In this document: positions 18,165 to 24,441 of the stretch, one piece after another
How positions within the stretch are numbered: position 1 is the first letter of the stretch
How the letters are laid out: every line of letters begins with the position of its first letter
Origin: Hamadaea flava
GTDB taxonomy: Bacteria; Actinomycetota; Actinomycetes; Mycobacteriales; Micromonosporaceae
DNA length: 64,000 nt
Assembly (NCBI RefSeq): GCF_024172085.1
Contig: NZ_JAMZDZ010000001.1
Location: 558,001 to 622,000 of the forward strand
Reading direction: 5' to 3'
Translations under genes and position numbers: made by a program
Notes under the pieces: generated by a model
Told to the model about the DNA's origin: nothing
Database searches by the model: none
What the model saw: only the letters and a program-made list of their open reading frames with translations

Positions 18165-18698
18165 ATGACCGGGCGATCCGAGGTGCTGCTGATCGGCGGC
18201 CGGGCCGGGGTGGGCAAGACGACGGTCGCGAACGAGATCCACGCTCAGCTCTCCGGGCTGCGGGTTCGCCATTGCGTCATCGAGGGCGACAACCTCGATC
18301 TGGCGTACCCGGCGCCGTGGGAGCACCAGCTGGCGGAGCGCAACCTCGCGGCGATGTGGCACAACTATCGGGCGCTCGGCTATCGCCGGCTGGTCTACAC
18401 CAACACCGTCAGCGTGCAGTACATCGCCGAGTTGACCGCTGCGATGGGGGACGATCCAAAGGTGATCGCCGTACTGCTGACGGCCGGCGACTCGGCCGCG
18501 CGGGAGCGCCTGGCCCGCCGGGAGATCGGCAGTGGACTCGCGTACCACGTGGAGCGCAGCGACCTGATGGCCCGACGGCTGGACGAGACGGTTCCGGCGA
18601 CGGTCGTGCGAATGTCGACGGACGGCCGGACCGTCGCGGAGATCGCCACGGAGGTCCTCGGGTTGACCGGGTGGACGGCGGCCCCGCGCCGAGACTGA
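18165..18698 (+). CDS. P-loop kinase-like ATPase
   Basis: 177 residues. Walker A is GGRAGVGKTTVANEI (11-25), and the layout (VIEGDNLDLAYP, RLVYTNTVSVQYIAEL, VIAVLLTAGDSAARERLARRE, then MSTDGRTVAEIATEVL) is that of small nucleoside, nucleotide or polynucleotide kinases with a lid region. A substrate cannot be assigned. It lies immediately upstream of the 18780 gene and the tRNA-like RNA run, which makes an RNA-end kinase a hypothesis worth testing. Confidence 0.75.
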   Translation: MTGRSEVLLIGGRAGVGKTTVANEIHAQLSGLRVRHCVIEGDNLDLAYPAPWEHQLAERNLAAMWHNYRALGYRRLVYTNTVSVQYIAELTAAMGDDPKVIAVLLTAGDSAARERLARREIGSGLAYHVERSDLMARRLDETVPATVVRMSTDGRTVAEIATEVLGLTGWTAAPRRD

Positions 18699-18779: not shown

Positions 18780-19511
18780 ATGACCAAGCTCAACCAGATC
18801 ATCGCGCTGGAGAAGGGCGTCAAGGCGACCGCCGAGACGACTTTGACGAAGGCGTACCACGAGGCGCAGAAGCCGGACCTGTTCGCCGGTCTCATCCGGA
18901 CCTACGAGCCGCTCGAGGAGGACGGTTACGTCCTGCCGTCGGAGTCGAAGAAGGTCACCGCGAAGGTGCCGTCGCTCGTGTCGGAGATCGAGGCCGCGGT
19001 GGAGCGGCTGATCGACCTGACGCTGACCAAGGACACGGCGAACGCGGTCGCGAAGGCCGACGTGAAGGTGGGCGACACCGTCCTGGCCGCCGACGTGCCG
19101 GTGACGACGCTGCTGTGGCTGGAGAAGCAGCTGACGAACCTGCGGACGTTCATCTCGAAGCTGCCGGTCACCGACGTCGCCGACGACTGGACCTGGGACG
19201 GCGACAACCAGGTGTTCCGGTCGGCCACGGTGAAGACGATGCGGTCGCGCAAGTCCGAGGACTTCATCGTCGTCGTCCCGCCGACCGACAAGCACCCCGC
19301 CCACGTGGAGAAGGTGACCAAGGACGTCCCCGAGGGCACCTGGTCGACCACGAAGCTGTCCGGCGCGGTCTCGCCGTCGCAGCGCGACACCTGGCTGGCT
19401 CAGGTCACCACGGTGACCGAGGCGGTCAAGACGGCGCGCGAGCAGGCGAACCTGGCCGAGGTGGTGGACGCCAAGATGGGCAAGAAGATCCTGGACTACA
19501 TCTTCCGATGA
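18780..19511 (+). CDS. Conserved hypothetical protein preceding a tRNA-like RNA cluster
   Basis: 243 residues, lysine-rich and soluble, with strong coding character. It opens MTKLNQIIALEKGVKATAET and carries VLAADVPVTTLLWLEKQLTNLRTFISKLPVTD, a DDWTWDGDNQVFR segment and KHPAHVEKVTKDVPEGTWSTTKLSG. I recall proteins of this pattern as an actinobacterial family without known function (I believe DUF7873). ATG 18780 is preceded by GGGGAGGATC. A hairpin follows at 19525-19544 and then the tRNA-like segments, so it may act with those RNAs. Confidence 0.7.
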   Translation: MTKLNQIIALEKGVKATAETTLTKAYHEAQKPDLFAGLIRTYEPLEEDGYVLPSESKKVTAKVPSLVSEIEAAVERLIDLTLTKDTANAVAKADVKVGDTVLAADVPVTTLLWLEKQLTNLRTFISKLPVTDVADDWTWDGDNQVFRSATVKTMRSRKSEDFIVVVPPTDKHPAHVEKVTKDVPEGTWSTTKLSGAVSPSQRDTWLAQVTTVTEAVKTAREQANLAEVVDAKMGKKILDYIFR

Positions 19512-19524
19512 GTCCGCACCGACT

Positions 19525-19544
19525 CCCGGCTTCGGCCGGGTGAG
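19525..19544 (+). terminator. Hairpin after the 18780 gene
   Basis: CCCGGC-TTCG-GCCGGG, a six-pair stem with a stable TTCG tetraloop, sits 15 bases past the stop codon. It lacks a T tract. It also overlaps the place where a 5' acceptor strand for the first tRNA-like unit would lie. Confidence 0.4.
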
Positions 19545-19618
19545 CACAAGTTGAGATTGAGGCTCGAGTTCAGGCTGACGCGGGCCGGGAGAGTGCAGGT
19601 TCGAGTCCTGCCCGGGGC
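19531..19618 (+). ncRNA. tRNA-like segment A
   Basis: A perfect T arm is present: GCAGG (19595-19599), loop TTCGAGT, CCTGC (19607-19611). It is followed by CCGGGGC, which can pair with CTCCCGG at 19531-19537 as a six-pair acceptor stem with a mismatch at the end pair. No ordinary D or anticodon arm is found between, so this is a tRNA mimic or a degenerate tRNA. Confidence 0.4.
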
Positions 19619-19623
19619 ACTCA

Positions 19624-19761
19624 CGTCCCGGTAGCCCAACTGGCAGAGGCGACCGGTGGCACCCAGACTCTTGCTCCAAGATCAAGCGCAGTTCGGCCAG
19701 TTCGCATCGACCAGCGCCAGGCAGTGGAATCGCAGACCCCAGTTCGAATCTGGGCGGGACC
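19624..19761 (+). ncRNA. tRNA-like segment B with enlarged centre
   Basis: The 3' part has a perfect T arm (CCCAG 19738-19742, TTCGAAT, CTGGG 19750-19754), and CGGGAC pairs with GTCCCG at 19625-19630. A D arm (GCC-CAACTGGCAGA-GGC, 19634-19650) is good, including GG in the loop. Between D and T arms lie about 85 bases instead of about 22, with no clear anticodon arm. AACTGGC (19638-19644) could instead pair with GCCAGTT (19696-19702). It is therefore not a standard tRNA. Confidence 0.45.
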
Positions 19762-19847
19762 TCTTCATGGTCTCGTGGAGTAGCGGCAACTCGGCAGCCG
19801 ATAGGAATGACCTGGAGCTTTAAATGTGGCGACGAGCGCCGGACGTC
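19762..19847 (+). ncRNA. Possible tRNA-like segment C
   Basis: GAG-TAGCGGCAA-CTC resembles the D arm of methionine-type tRNAs and TTTAAAT recalls a T loop, but stems do not close. It is listed because it fills the space between two better units in the same run. Confidence 0.2.
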
Positions 19848-19919
19848 CACGTGATAGCGCAGCAGTAGCGCATCGGACTCTTAATCCGACGGACGCCGGT
19901 GCGAATCCGGCTCACGTAA
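19848..19919 (+). tRNA. tRNA-Lys(CUU)-like RNA, noncanonical
   Basis: All four arms fold: acceptor CACGTGA with TCACGTA (six pairs, C1-A72 mismatch), D stem GCGC/GCGC with a seven-base loop lacking GG, anticodon stem TCGGA/TCCGA with loop CTCTTAA (anticodon CTT), a five-base variable region and T stem GCCGG/CCGGC. The T loop is TGCGAAT rather than TTCGAAT. The missing loop guanines and the altered T loop would disturb the normal tertiary contacts, so it may be a decoy or a specialised tRNA. No CCA is encoded. Confidence 0.5.
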
Positions 19920-19921
19920 CA

Positions 19922-19951
19922 GGGGGCCACGCCAGGGTAGGCGTGGCCCCC
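19922..19951 (+). terminator. Strong hairpin closing the tRNA-like run
   Basis: GGGGGCCACGCC pairs perfectly with GGCGTGGCCCCC around the loop AGGGTA (12 pairs). It lies two bases past the last tRNA-like unit and implies that the run is really transcribed on the plus strand. Confidence 0.75.
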
Positions 19952-21212: not shown

Positions 21213-23636
21213 TCAAGCCGCCACGATGTTCACCAGCGACGGTGGGCGCACGACCACCCGGGTCACCTCGGACGAGCCGAGCGCTGCGCGTACCCGCTCG
21301 GTGGAGAGAGCGAGCTCGCGCAGGCGTGACTCGCTGACGTCGGCCGGCACCGTGAGCTTGTCGCGGACCTTGCCGTTGATCTGGATCACGCAGGTGGCGG
21401 AGTCGGTGACCAGGAGCGTGGGGTCGGCGACCGGCCAAGGCCGCCGGCAGACGGACGGCGCGTGACCGAGCCGTTCCCACATCTCCTCCGCGGTGAACGG
21501 CGCGAAGCAGGACAGCATCGCCGCGAGCGCCTCGACGCCTTCGCGGGTGGCCGGATCGCTCGGCGAAGCCTTGCGCAGCACCGTCGTCAGCTCCATGAGC
21601 CGGGCAATGGCCACATTGAACCGGCGGCCGTCCATAGCGGACGTCGTCTCCGCGATCAGGCGGTGCACAGCACGCTGAAGGTCGCCATCGGACTCCCCTG
21701 TGGACGGCAGGAGCGAGCCGGAGAGCCGCCAGACGCGCGAGAGCCACTTGACGGCGCCGGCGGGCGAGACGTCCGCCCAGTCGATGTCGTCCTCGGGCGG
21801 CCCGGCGAACACCATGGTGACGCGGACGGCGTCCGGGCCGTAGCTCGCGATCTGCTCCTGGAGATTGACGAGATTGCCCAGCGTCTTGCTCATCGCCTTG
21901 CCGTTCATGATGACCTGACCCTGGTTGGTCAGCCGGGTGAACGGCTCGGTGAACGGCAGCAGGCCGAGGTCGTGCAGGGCCTTGGTGAGCCAGCGGGCGT
22001 ACATGAGGTGGCCCGTCGCATGCTCGCGCCCGCCGATGTATTCGTCGACCGGCAGCCAGCGGGCCAGCCCGGCCGGATCGAACGGGCCCTCCTCGTAGGT
22101 CGGATTCGGGTAGCGCAGGAAGTACCACGAGGAATCCACGAAGGTGTCCATCGTGTCCGTGTCGCGCTGTGCTGAACCACCGCACTGGGGACAGTCCACG
22201 TTCACCCAGTCGGTCGCGCTGGCCAAGGGGGACTTGCCGTCGGTGGGCCGCAGTACGTAGCCGCTGTCCGGTAGCCGGACCGGCAGCTCGCCGTCGGGCA
22301 CCGGAACGAGGCCACACCGGTCACAGTGGATGATCGGGATCGGCGTGCCCCAGTAGCGTTGCCGGGAGATCAGCCAGTCCCGCCAGCGGTACGTGACGGC
22401 CTCCTCCGCGCCGATCCGCTCGACGATCGCCCGTCCGGCCTCAGTGGACGGCATGCCGGTGAACTCGCCCGAGTCGATCAGCCGCCCCTCCCCCTCGGTC
22501 GCGACGTCGGTCTCCCGTGGATCAGGCTCGCCAGTGTCGATGACCGGGCGCACCGGCAACGCGTGGACCAGCGCGAAGTCCAGGTCCCGCTGATCGTGGG
22601 CGGGCACCGCCATGATCGCGCCCGTGCCGTAGTGCGCCAGGACGTAGTCGGCCGCGTACACCGGCACGCGCTCGCCGGTCGCCGGGTGGATCGCGTACCG
22701 CCCCAGGAACACGCCGGTCTTGGGCCGGTCCGCCGCCAGCCGCTCCAGCTCCGTCGCGGTCGCGGCCTGCTCCCGGTAGGTCTCGAACGCCGCGCGCTGC
22801 CCGTCGCTCACCAACTCCGCGGCCAGCGCCGCGTCCACCGCCACGACCAGGAAGGTCGCGCCGAACAGGGTGTCCGGGCGCGTCGTGAACACCCGGACCG
22901 CGTCACCGCCGTCGAGTTCGAAGGAGAGGTACGCACCAACGGAGCGACCGATCCAGTTGCGTTGCATCGCCAGGATCTCGTTCGGCCAGTGCCCGGCCAA
23001 CTGCGCCATGTCGTCGAGCATCCGCTGGGCGTACCCGGTGGTATGGAAGAACCACTGCGTCAACGGACGCTGGACGACCACCGCACCGCATCGCTCGCAT
23101 CGACCGCCGATGACCTGCTCGTTGGCCAGTACGGTCTGGTCGTTCGGGCACCAGTTGACCGCCGCCGCTTTCCGGTACGCGAGCCCGGCCGCGAACAGCC
23201 GCAGAAACAGCCACTGGTTCCACCGGTAGTACTCGGGATCCGACGTGTGCAGCCGCGTACGCCAGTCGAACGAAACGCCGAGGCGCCGGAACGAGCGCGC
23301 CTGCGTCTCGATGTTGGCGTACGTCCACTCGCGGGGATCGAGGCCGCGTTTGCGGGCCGCGTTCTCGGCGGGCAGCCCGAACGAGTCCCAGCCGATGCCG
23401 TTGAGCACGTTTTGGCCACGCATACGCAGATAGCGGGCGATCGCGTCGCTGATCGAGTAGACCTCGGCATGCCCCATGTGCAGGTCGCCCGACGGGTACG
23501 GGAACATGCTGACGACGTAGGACCGGGCGGCGTCGCCGTCGCTCGCCTGATAGACGCCCAACTCGTCCCAGATCGCCGTCCACTTGTCGACGACCGAGTT
23601 CGGGTCGTACGCGTCTTCGCTGCTGTCGATGCCCAT
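21213..23636 (-). CDS. leuS: Leucyl-tRNA synthetase (short form)
   Basis: 807 residues. The HIGH motif is in [16 protein letters not shown], the editing domain in [18 protein letters not shown] and [16 protein letters not shown] (with the editing Asp). The KMSKS loop is changed to [10 protein letters not shown]. Zinc-type cysteines appear at CERCGAVV and [16 protein letters not shown]. It charges tRNA-Leu and hydrolyses mischarged products. As I recall actinobacterial LeuS is usually near 950 residues, so this may be a second copy; only the whole genome can tell. ATG 23636 is chosen because upstream in-frame codons reach toward the divergent gene. Confidence 0.88.
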
Positions 23637-23667
23637 CCCGCCCAGTCTGGCATCGACCTGATACACC

Positions 23668-24441
23668 ATGCACATGAATTCGCGTACGCGCGCAGTCACC
23701 TGGACGCTCGTCGGCGCGTTGCTGCTCTCCCTGGCCAGCGGGGTGGTCCTGGCCCTACTGAGCGACGCCGGCCCGGACCGCACCACGTTCGTCGTCGTCC
23801 TCCTCGCCGTCAACGCGGTCGCCGTGCTGGCCGGCCTGACCGCCACGATCGCCGGAGCGATCATGCTCGGGTCGAGCGGGTCCCGGCGCAGGGCGGGCTT
23901 CATCGTGACCGGCCGAGCGTTCCGCATCCCGCCACGGACCGACCTGCGGCTCAACGGCGTCCTCGGCATCCTGATCACCGGACCGCTGGGCGGGATGATG
24001 TGGCGTTCGCCGGACTCGCGAGGCATCGCGATCGCCTTCGTGACCTGCATGGCGATCCTGATCGCGCTGATCCTCGCCGTCGGACCGGGCCCCGTCCTCG
24101 AACTGCGCCCGACGGGCGTCTACTGGAACGCCCGCGTCTTCCGGCGGCACATCCCGTGGGAGGCCCTGGCTCCGGGCGGCCCGGACCGGCCGCGCCCGTC
24201 CGACTTCCGGCTGCTGTTGATCGTGACCCGGCCGGAGCTGGTCACCCAGCGCGGGTCACGGCTGGGCAGCGGAACGGCTGAGCGGCCGTTCCTGTCGCTC
24301 GCGATGGATGTCCATCCGGTGTTCCTGGCCGATGCGATCCACTGGTACGCGGACCACCCTGAAGACTGTCGGGCCATCGGTACGCAGGCTGAGCACGACC
24401 GGCTCCGCACGGCGCTCGGGGCAGTTCCCGCCCCGGCTTAG
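23668..24441 (+). CDS. Membrane protein of unknown function
   Basis: 257 residues. Four likely helices: [61 protein letters not shown] and [21 protein letters not shown]-terminal cytoplasmic domain follows ([24 protein letters not shown]), which looks like the PH-like fold of many actinobacterial membrane proteins. Divergent from leuS with 31 bases between starts. ATG 23674 is an equally possible start. Confidence 0.65.

What the first reader, a model, noticed from the sequence alone, without database searches (positions are those of the whole stretch)
19525..19951. Run of noncanonical tRNA-like RNAs closed by a strong terminator
Three perfect T-arm motifs (19595-19611, 19738-19754, 19895-19911) lie within 320 bases. 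Each has a matching six-pair acceptor stem with a mismatched end pair. One unit folds fully as tRNA-Lys(CUU) but lacks the D-loop GG and has TGC in the T loop; another has an 85-base insert in place of the anticodon region. A 12-pair hairpin ends the run. These look like tRNA mimics or a decayed tRNA array.
Basis: partly seen in the sequence, partly recalled or inferred. Interest (0 to 1): 0.75.

Follow-up and report, generated by a model that had tools for sequence, protein, structure and literature searches.

The report
Tandem tRNA-mimic RNA with phage protein
Right after a gene of unknown function lies one structured RNA made of several tRNA look-alikes, two of them with their halves in swapped order, and the same gene-plus-RNA pair recurs in bacterial chromosomes and in phages of very different hosts, so it appears to be an undescribed RNA-protein system rather than tRNA decay.

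Summary
In detail: three perfect T-arms, the only ones in 64 kb, sit between a DUF7873 gene (PF25283) and a 12-bp hairpin. Units 1 and 2 are not two tRNAs: the 3' half of each faces the 5' half of the next across a closed acceptor hairpin, giving two circularly permuted tRNA-like modules (A, B) in one ~420-nt RNA, then a canonical-order tRNA-Lys-like domain (C) and a conserved end hairpin. Covariation is overwhelming (82.8% of cells paired against 40-45% when slid), so decay is refuted. The RNA follows DUF7873 in 19 of 19 related genomes that carry the gene and in nearly all phage loci examined. In a second genus the model finds it in 40 of 40 genomes with DUF7873 and 0 of 41 without. Its modules resemble bacterial Y RNA (YrlA), but it scores far below Rfam's cut-off, lacks the Ro-type motif (0 of 107; 6 of 6 Ro-linked loci have it), and 11 of 19 carriers lack Ro60. 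Best reading: an undescribed RNP whose tRNA-mimic heads engage tRNA-handling enzymes or tRNA-targeting toxins, with DUF7873 bound to the body. Architecture and linkage are shown; function is inferred.

The parts
18780..19511 (+). DUF7873 protein gene (243 aa), the protein partner
   Evidence: PF25283, E 1.9e-92; RNA linked to it in all relatives that carry it
19525..19540 (+). 5' hairpin CCCGGC-TTCG-GCCGGG
   Evidence: located; a GC hairpin at this place in other host loci seen by eye
19542..19545 (+). helix P_A1, 5' strand GAGC (partner 19673-19676 GCTC)
   Evidence: 70.6% of cells paired, all 6 pairs with changes on both sides (helix 1); block-swap test only modest, 4.88 against cross maximum 4.77
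19548..19578 (+). strand S1 with the 6-nt repeat ARRYUS
   Evidence: YUNA spacing of 6 nt seen 101 times in 57 loci, 1.3 in shuffles; codon use argues against coding
19584..19588 (+). anticodon-stem equivalent of module A, strand next to the T-arm (partner 19653-19657)
   Evidence: >=5 bp in 39 of 57 loci, cross-locus mean 13.8, maximum 23; window pairs read by eye
19595..19611 (+). module A T-arm
19612..19631 (+). module A acceptor hairpin CCGGGGC-ACTCAC-GTCCCGG (permuted)
   Evidence: 99.4% of cells paired, 7 of 7 pairs with changes on both sides; unbiased test
19634..19650 (+). module A D-arm with GG in the loop
   Evidence: helix 7; GG among invariant columns
19653..19657 (+). anticodon-stem equivalent of module A, strand after the D-arm
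   Evidence: window pairs read by eye
19666..19687 (+). mid strand GACTCTTGCTCCAAGATCAAGC with GCTC of P_A1 at 19673-19676
   Evidence: conserved in the alignments; located
19691..19697 (+). helix P_B1, 5' strand (partner 19838-19844)
   Evidence: only 46.6% of cells paired in the alignment, which is poor here; nested pairing read by eye in the window
19700..19705 (+). helix P_B2, 5' strand (partner 19828-19833)
   Evidence: 90.3% paired, 6 of 6 pairs with changes on both sides (helix 9)
19706..19712 (+). conserved internal loop AUCGACC, facing 19819-19826 UUUAAAUG
   Evidence: [CT]TTAAA[CT]G in 54 of 107 loci, none of 7 Y-RNA-type loci
19714..19721 (+). helix P_B3, 5' strand (partner 19811-19818)
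   Evidence: 84.1% and 82.1% paired, 9 of 9 pairs with changes on both sides (helices 10 and 11)
19738..19754 (+). module B T-arm
   Evidence: 100% paired (helix 13)
19755..19775 (+). module B acceptor hairpin CGGGACC-TCTTCAT-GGTCTCG (permuted)
   Evidence: 98.9% paired, 6 of 7 pairs with changes on both sides (helix 14)
19778..19792 (+). module B D-arm
   Evidence: 98.0% paired (helix 15)
19811..19844 (+). 3' strands of P_B3 (19811-19818), P_B2 (19828-19833), P_B1 (19838-19844) and the conserved UUUAAAUG loop
19848..19919 (+). domain C, canonical-order tRNA-Lys(CTT)-like fold, 6-bp acceptor, no D-loop GG, no CCA
   Evidence: such a fold follows module B in 24 of 88 loci, a few of them probably real tRNAs
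19922..19951 (+). 3' hairpin, 12 bp, loop AGGGTA
   Evidence: 53 of 55 two-module loci have a 10-14 bp hairpin with loop GGNYA, 43 of these 53 with 12-13 bp; 0 of 19 control hairpins

Best explanation
The stretch is one non-coding RNA gene, the partner of the DUF7873 protein. SHOWN: the RNA carries two circularly permuted tRNA-like modules (T-arm, acceptor hairpin, D-arm, each on an anticodon-stem equivalent), a covarying body with conserved unpaired motifs, a 6-nt sequence repeat, here also a canonical-order tRNA-like domain, and a 3' hairpin of fixed length with a conserved loop; gene and RNA occur together and are absent together. INFERRED: DUF7873 binds the body of the RNA (repeat, AUCGACC/UUAAACG loop, end hairpin), and the tRNA-like heads, which keep the elbow, G1-C72 and often a 3' NCCA but present no anticodon loop, dock proteins that read tRNAs by elbow and acceptor (RNase P, CCA enzyme, T-loop modifiers, or toxins that attack tRNA ends). 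In phages, where the pair often sits in tRNA arrays, the likely use is to occupy or recruit such factors and so protect the tRNA pool during infection; chromosomal copies would be captured or defensive versions.
For: Covariation: 82.8% of cells paired against 59.1% shuffled and 39.6-45.2% slid; 64 of 69 pairs with changes on both sides; in an APC-MI scan of 57 loci the top 35 or so column pairs lie almost wholly in these helices, with a Levitt-like 15-48 covariation in module B. Permuted acceptor pairing in an unbiased sample of 32 loci. Linkage: 19 of 19 DUF7873 genomes among 61 relatives have the RNA downstream; all 18 model hits above 54 bits in those 61 genomes lie at DUF7873 loci; in another genus 40 of 40 with DUF7873 and 0 of 41 without have a hit above 55 bits. 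Phages: 101 of 107 loci, hosts included, have at least one module within 700 nt downstream against 6-11 in shuffles; 58 of 64 phage loci not used for training hit model R1 just downstream. NCCA at the start of 69 of 147 acceptor loops, 5.1 expected. Neighbouring genes are not conserved, so the unit is gene plus RNA. The RNA stays linked across insertions: a chaperonin-10 ORF in L090, an IscB-like ORF with HEARO RNA in L049. tRNA arrays: 16 of 60 phage loci scanned have 5 or more ARAGORN genes within about 2.5 kb.
Against: No expression, binding or phenotype data. DUF7873 is not basic (median pI 6.3 over 106 proteins) and matches no known fold at E <= 0.001, so its RNA binding is unproven. In some phages an acceptor stem runs into a long perfect hairpin (L061, L095) or a long loop, so a free NCCA end is not universal. 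Ro-linked Y RNAs can also show ACCA in this loop (L131, L132), so NCCA is not specific to this RNA. 4 of 19 host loci lack or have degraded module A (L013, L014, L017, L018). 37 of 60 phage loci show fewer than two ARAGORN genes nearby. Pairing between the two repeat strands is not supported (6.26 against 6.09).
Confidence: 0.38

Rival explanations
1. Processing-signal reading: the permuted modules are there to be cut. RNase P and 3'-end enzymes cleave in the acceptor loops (NCCA | spacer | G1), turning the transcript into two or three RNA pieces held together by the tRNA-like folds, as in permuted two-piece tmRNA; the pieces, not the heads, do the work.
For: NCCA at 69 of 147 acceptor loops, 5.1 expected; G1-C72 nearly fixed (44 of 49 in A, 50 of 50 in B); loops of very variable length, some with their own hairpins; weak beta_tmRNA hits to the module in Klebsiella and Vibrio phages (24.8 and 25.1 bits, cut-off 84).
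Against: No G3-U70 (1 of 50 in A, 0 of 50 in B) and no coding tag found; repeats use AGR triplets 13 of 32 times while host DUF7873 genes use them for 5 of 213 Arg. Some acceptor stems are sealed by long hairpins without NCCA.
Confidence: 0.25
2. Y-RNA reading: it is a divergent Ro60 Y RNA that works with Ro60 and PNPase in RNA quality control.
For: Same permuted T-arm/acceptor/D-arm order; YrlA model hits of 24.5-40.5 bits at these loci; the own genome also has a Ro60 gene with a YrlA-like RNA beside it.
Against: All below YrlA's cut-off of 69; Ro-type motif GGTTACTTC in 0 of 107 loci but in 6 of 6 Ro60-linked loci; 11 of 19 DUF7873 genomes have no Ro60 hit; strict linkage to DUF7873 instead.
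Confidence: 0.07
3. 6-nt-repeat filament reading: DUF7873 polymerises along the ARRYUS repeats, one subunit per 6 nt, and the tRNA-like modules only cap or position the filament.
For: Repeat spacing of exactly 6 nt (101 against 1.3), not explained by coding or by base pairing.
Against: Only about 2-4 repeats per strand; no filament-forming fold recognised.
Confidence: 0.12
4. Decayed tRNA array: chance remains of tRNA genes.
For: A tRNA-Lys-like fold is present and phage copies often sit in tRNA arrays.
Against: Covariation of both permuted modules and of the body, and 40 of 40 against 0 of 41 linkage.
Confidence: 0.01

Closest known systems
Bacterial Y RNA, YrlA type (RF02553), with Ro60/Rsr (TROVE, PF05731)
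   Same: Circularly permuted tRNA-like module with closed acceptor hairpin, ends leaving through an anticodon-stem equivalent; gene next to its protein partner.
   Different: Partner is DUF7873, not Ro60; two permuted modules and sometimes a third canonical-order fold in one RNA; other conserved body motifs; no GGTTACTTC; score far below the YrlA cut-off.
Circularly permuted (two-piece) tmRNA
   Same: T-arm and 3' acceptor strand precede the 5' acceptor strand and D-arm; no anticodon loop; NCCA often at the right place (tmRNA order recalled, not from a call).
   Different: No G3-U70, no tag reading frame found, two modules in tandem.
tRNA arrays of phages, plasmids and mycobacteria, with or without GOLLD RNA
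   Same: Phage copies often lie in tRNA arrays; such arrays are called a putative antidefense system (PMC12803027, passages).
   Different: Modules A and B are not translatable tRNAs; no GOLLD or ROOL hit in the Rfam scans.
Intrinsic terminator
   Same: Strong GC hairpin at the 3' end.
   Different: No T run after it in the window; loop GGNYA and 12-13 bp stem conserved from chromosomes to phages.

Membership tests
Bacterial Y RNA (YrlA, RF02553) | Permuted tRNA-like module T-arm / acceptor hairpin / D-arm | tested here: met
Bacterial Y RNA (YrlA, RF02553) | Score at or above Rfam's gathering score (69 bits) | tested here: not met
   best 40.5 bits among the DUF7873 loci scanned; window 24.8. 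Caution: the Ro60-linked RNAs of these genomes also stay below it (best 49.7)
Bacterial Y RNA (YrlA, RF02553) | Ro-type conserved strand, here GGTTACTTC as read from Ro60-linked loci | tested here: not met
   0 of 107 against 6 of 6 Ro60-linked loci
Bacterial Y RNA (YrlA, RF02553) | Ro60 (TROVE) protein in the same genome | tested here: not met
   8 of 19 DUF7873 genomes have a TROVE hit; own genome has one 2.3 Mb away
Bacterial Y RNA (YrlA, RF02553) | Binding to Ro60 | not testable with these tools
   needs a binding assay
tmRNA (permuted) | G3-U70 alanine identity pair | tested here: not met
   1 of 50 in module A, 0 of 50 in module B
tmRNA (permuted) | Tag reading frame | tested here: inconclusive
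   the repeat strand looks like K/R-L/F codons, but codon use argues against coding; no full search for a tag was made
tmRNA (permuted) | Rfam tmRNA match at gathering score | tested here: not met
   none at the RNA; weak beta_tmRNA hits only
Ordinary tRNA genes (modules A and B) | 5' acceptor strand pairs with the 3' strand downstream in canonical order | tested here: not met
   3.97 of 7, cross-locus 3.86
Ordinary tRNA gene (domain C) | Rfam tRNA at gathering score | tested here: met
   64.1 bits, cut-off 29
Ordinary tRNA gene (domain C) | Complete 7-bp acceptor and D-loop G18G19 | tested here: not met
   pair 1-72 is C-A and the D loop lacks GG
GOLLD or ROOL large ornate RNA | Rfam match | tested here: not met
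   no match
DUF7873 (PF25283) | Pfam match above cut-off | tested here: met
   309.8 bits, cut-off 27

The most novel reading that the evidence does not exclude
A categorically new ribonucleoprotein class, carried by phages of actinobacteria, proteobacteria and cyanobacteria and by chromosomes: the DUF7873 protein assembles on a 6-nt-repeat RNA that displays two or three tRNA mimics, and the particle disarms host factors that read or damage tRNA acceptor ends and elbows (a multivalent tRNA decoy), a form of counter-defence for which the searches listed no description.
Probability: 0.3. Interest if true: 0.93.

Novelty: new variant of a known kind. Interest (0 to 1): 0.8.

Why it matters
tRNA mimicry by bacterial non-coding RNAs is known from Y RNAs, whose tRNA-like module, as far as I know, still has no settled job. 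Here the same permuted module recurs, twice per molecule, with an unrelated protein and without dependence on Ro60, in phages of distant hosts and in about half of the species sampled from one actinobacterial genus (40 of 81). That makes the purpose of the permuted tRNA fold testable in lytic phages with tractable genetics, explains a Pfam family of unknown function as half of an RNA-protein pair, and gives a model to sites now annotated as odd tRNAs or left blank in phage tRNA arrays. If the decoy reading holds, it would add an RNA-based counter to tRNA-targeting defence.

Tried and rejected
Rejected: decay of a tRNA array. Rejected: canonical tRNA with an 85-nt anticodon insert for unit 2. 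Rejected: K/R-L/F coding of the repeat strand as a tmRNA-like tag; host DUF7873 genes use AGR for 5 of 213 Arg codons, the repeats for 13 of 32 K/R-like triplets. Rejected: base pairing between the S1 and mid repeats (6.26 against 6.09). Rejected: linkage to the P-loop kinase at 18165, absent from the other loci by tblastn; the 17594 gene is found only in L002/L020 and LeuRS only in L003/L021. Mistake made and corrected: I first read the wrong side of ten minus-strand loci and thought they lacked the RNA (noted, corrected).

Led nowhere: fold searches: no PDB or BFVD match at E <= 0.001; best BFVD E 2.1e-3 to an unnamed protein; VIA-align best 3kdq, a Corynebacterium protein of unknown function, Z 9.2 but rmsd 8.0. 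Absence of a listed fold excludes nothing. Sequence search of solved structures: best E 0.071. PHROGs and NCBIfam gave nothing for DUF7873. L118 has a long insert in module A's acceptor loop that looked like a group I intron by eye; Rfam gave no hit. L086 and L087 have no R1 hit downstream (L086 again with filters off).

Literature: 'DUF7873' is in 0 held papers. Searches on Y RNA with tRNA-like and Ro60, on phage tRNA arrays with GOLLD, and on permuted or tRNA-mimic RNA in phages listed nothing that, by title and abstract start, describes this RNA; the library holds open-licence papers only. The two key Y RNA papers (Chen 2014, Wang 2018) are not held and are known to me through citations in PMC7790460 and PMC11472068 (passages) and recall.

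Selections: of 107 loci, 58 had two modules under my gap rule, 57 after removing one repeat; alignment A3 uses 50 of 57, with 7 near-duplicates or truncated loci dropped; model R1 uses 35 of these 50, loci with long acceptor loops or poor ends left out. Acceptor, T-arm and D-arm percentages come from loci chosen partly by those helices; P_A1, P_B1, P_B2, P_B3 and both anticodon-stem equivalents were not used in choosing. One search also finds module-like hits upstream in 29 of 107 loci (my count of its rows); I take most of these for neighbouring tRNAs in arrays but did not test it. The 55-bit line and the 54-bit line were drawn after seeing the lists. The 58 of 64, 7 of 7 and 6 of 6 count hits of 30 bits or more just downstream, read by eye from its table; two of the six misses (L122, L129) end within 130 nt of the gene. 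One search scanned 60 of the 80 IMG/VR loci; its ARAGORN counts include some domain C folds. The structure model used 65 proteins, L091 left out for a stop codon.

Full report
WHAT IS THERE. The window is part of an 8.86-Mb genome (G000) whose nearest named relatives are Hamadaea MAGs. The three T-arms of the finding are the only perfect ones on either strand of the window, against 0.1 expected per strand. ARAGORN and Rfam see only the third unit, as tRNA-Lys(CTT), 64.1 bits. A permissive Rfam scan of the stretch adds a weak YrlA (bacterial Y RNA) match at 19594-19650, 24.8 bits against a cut-off of 69. Its alignment showed the key point: the T-arm of 'unit 1', a hairpin made by its 3' acceptor strand and the 5' strand of 'unit 2', and the D-arm of 'unit 2' form one circularly permuted tRNA-like module.

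THE GENE BEFORE IT. 18780-19511 encodes a DUF7873 protein (PF25283, 309.8 bits). In 61 related genomes 19 have it. In all 19 the same RNA follows the stop codon (I first misread ten minus-strand loci and corrected this). Fifteen show two permuted modules; L013, L014, L017 and L018 have lost or degraded the first. Neighbouring genes are not shared: the P-loop kinase at 18165 is absent from the other loci.

PHAGES. DUF7873 is in 73 phage records (Vibrio, Gordonia, Rhizobium, Klebsiella, Serratia, Arthrobacter, Pseudanabaena, Rhodococcus, Microcoleus) and in 374 IMG/VR contigs, of which 80 were kept. In annotated phages the gene is often followed by an unannotated gap of some 400-1100 bases, often inside a tRNA array. 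The RNA is in that gap in six of the seven records first read, and displaced in the seventh, the Microcoleus phage. With a rule of T-arm, acceptor stem (at least 6 of 7 pairs) and D-arm, 101 of 107 loci (80 IMG/VR, 7 named phages, 20 chromosomal) have at least one module within 700 nt downstream; shuffled sequences give 6-11 of 107. In the Microcoleus phage an IscB-like ORF with its HEARO RNA, and in L090 a chaperonin-10 ORF, stands between gene and RNA, yet the RNA is still there. Divergent Klebsiella and Vibrio phages keep recognisable modules (37.0 and 31.1 bits).

STRUCTURE. On 50 loci a 69-pair structure has 82.8% of cells paired, against 59.1% in shuffles and 39.6-45.2% when partners are slid by 1-3 columns; 64 of 69 pairs have changes on both sides. 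Body helices not used to choose the loci also covary: P_B2 90.3%, P_B3 84.1% and 82.1%, P_A1 70.6%; P_B1 is only 46.6% in this alignment. A model-free APC-MI scan of 57 loci puts the helix pairs on top, with a 15-48-like (Levitt) covariation in module B, a sign of a real tRNA elbow (the Levitt assignment is mine). Stems that take the place of the anticodon stem reach 5 bp in 39 of 57 (A) and 36 of 57 (B) loci, against cross-locus means of 13.8 and 12.3; in the window the B stem is not clear by eye.

FURTHER CONSERVED FEATURES. (i) 69 of 147 acceptor loops begin N-C-C-A, 5.1 expected; G1-C72 is nearly fixed. The window's own loops (ACTCAC, TCTTCAT) do not. (ii) The strand before module A repeats YUNA every 6 nt: 101 spacings of 6, 1.3 in shuffles. 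Codon use argues against coding, and pairing with the mid strand is not supported. (iii) A conserved internal loop AUCGACC / UUAAACG. (iv) The 'terminator': 53 of 55 loci have a 10-14 bp hairpin with loop GGNYA, 43 of these 53 with 12-13 bp; 0 of 19 other hairpins have that loop. (v) A canonical-order tRNA-like domain C after module B in 24 of 88 loci, some of which are probably real tRNAs; in the window it is the tRNA-Lys-like fold.

LINKAGE. A covariance model of domain B (R1) was run on the 61 relatives: all 18 hits above 54 bits lie at DUF7873 loci; the 19th DUF7873 locus (G010) scores 51.5, and Ro60-linked Y RNAs reach 52.4 at most. In another genus (g60, unnamed by the tool; probably Streptomyces, since 3 of 4 plasmid-collection hits are Streptomyces), 40 of 81 genomes have DUF7873, and full-length hits above 55 bits occur in exactly those 40, just downstream on the same strand, and in 0 of the other 41 (compared by eye). 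Among DUF7873 loci not used to train R1, 58 of 64 phage, 7 of 7 and 6 of 6 chromosomal loci have a hit of 30 bits or more downstream. In 396 genomes of the phylum 7 have DUF7873; the control genome Deinobacterium chartae also has it.

WHAT IT IS NOT. Not a Ro60 Y RNA by the tests made: below cut-off everywhere, no GGTTACTTC strand (0 of 107 against 6 of 6 Ro60-linked loci), and 11 of 19 carriers without a TROVE hit. The own genome has a separate Ro60 gene with a YrlA-like RNA beside it, at 2.89 Mb. A caution: the Ro60-linked RNAs of these genomes also miss the YrlA cut-off. Not tmRNA: no G3-U70, no coding tag found. Not a decayed array.

HOW IT MOST LIKELY WORKS. Shown: one RNA, its fold, and strict linkage to DUF7873. 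Inferred: the protein binds the body and repeat, and the heads present tRNA elbows and acceptor ends without anticodon loops. Proteins that read tRNAs there are RNase P, the CCA enzyme, T-loop modifiers, EF-Tu and toxins that attack acceptor ends (general knowledge). The precedent is a suggestion in PMC7790460 (passages) that the tRNA-like part of YrlA might competitively inhibit an anticodon nuclease; tRNA arrays are called a putative antidefense system in PMC12803027 (passages). The phage setting fits a decoy or recruiting role, but nothing here tests it. The AlphaFold model of DUF7873 is confident (pLDDT 90.4, pTM 0.64) and matches no known fold at E <= 0.001.

NOVELTY. No Rfam 15 family covers the RNA at its cut-off except the tRNA match to domain C (for the window; for relatives). 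DUF7873 is in no held paper, and seven further searches listed nothing that describes it by title or abstract start. I file it as a new variant of a known kind (tRNA-mimicking RNAs with a dedicated protein); it may deserve a class of its own once a function is known.

Noticed in passing
L049:3950-5461 (Microcoleus phage My-WqHQDG): A HEARO RNA (129.1 bits) and an IscB-like ORF (RRXRR and HNH domains) sit between DUF7873 and its tRNA-like RNA.
   Followed up: partly
L090:3237-3497 (IMG/VR contig): A chaperonin-10 (GroES-like) ORF lies between DUF7873 and the RNA.
   Followed up: yes
L118, roughly 270-560 nt after the DUF7873 stop: A long insert inside module A's acceptor loop, intron-like by eye; no Rfam hit at E <= 0.05.
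   Followed up: partly
G000:C1:2888613-2889724 (L130) and L131, L133: Ro60 genes with YrlA-like RNAs beside them that stay below Rfam's cut-off; in L131 and L133 two such modules lie in tandem.
   Followed up: partly
window 21213-23673, - strand: A leucyl-tRNA synthetase gene stands near the tRNA-like RNA; it is also near in L021 but not in other loci, so probably unrelated. Whether the genome has a second LeuRS was not checked.
   Followed up: partly
L061 and L095, module B acceptor loop: The acceptor stem continues into a long perfect hairpin, so no free NCCA end can form there.
   Followed up: partly
window 18165-18698: A small P-loop kinase-like protein (AAA/APS-kinase-like, below Pfam cut-offs) just upstream of DUF7873, not conserved at the other loci.
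   Followed up: partly
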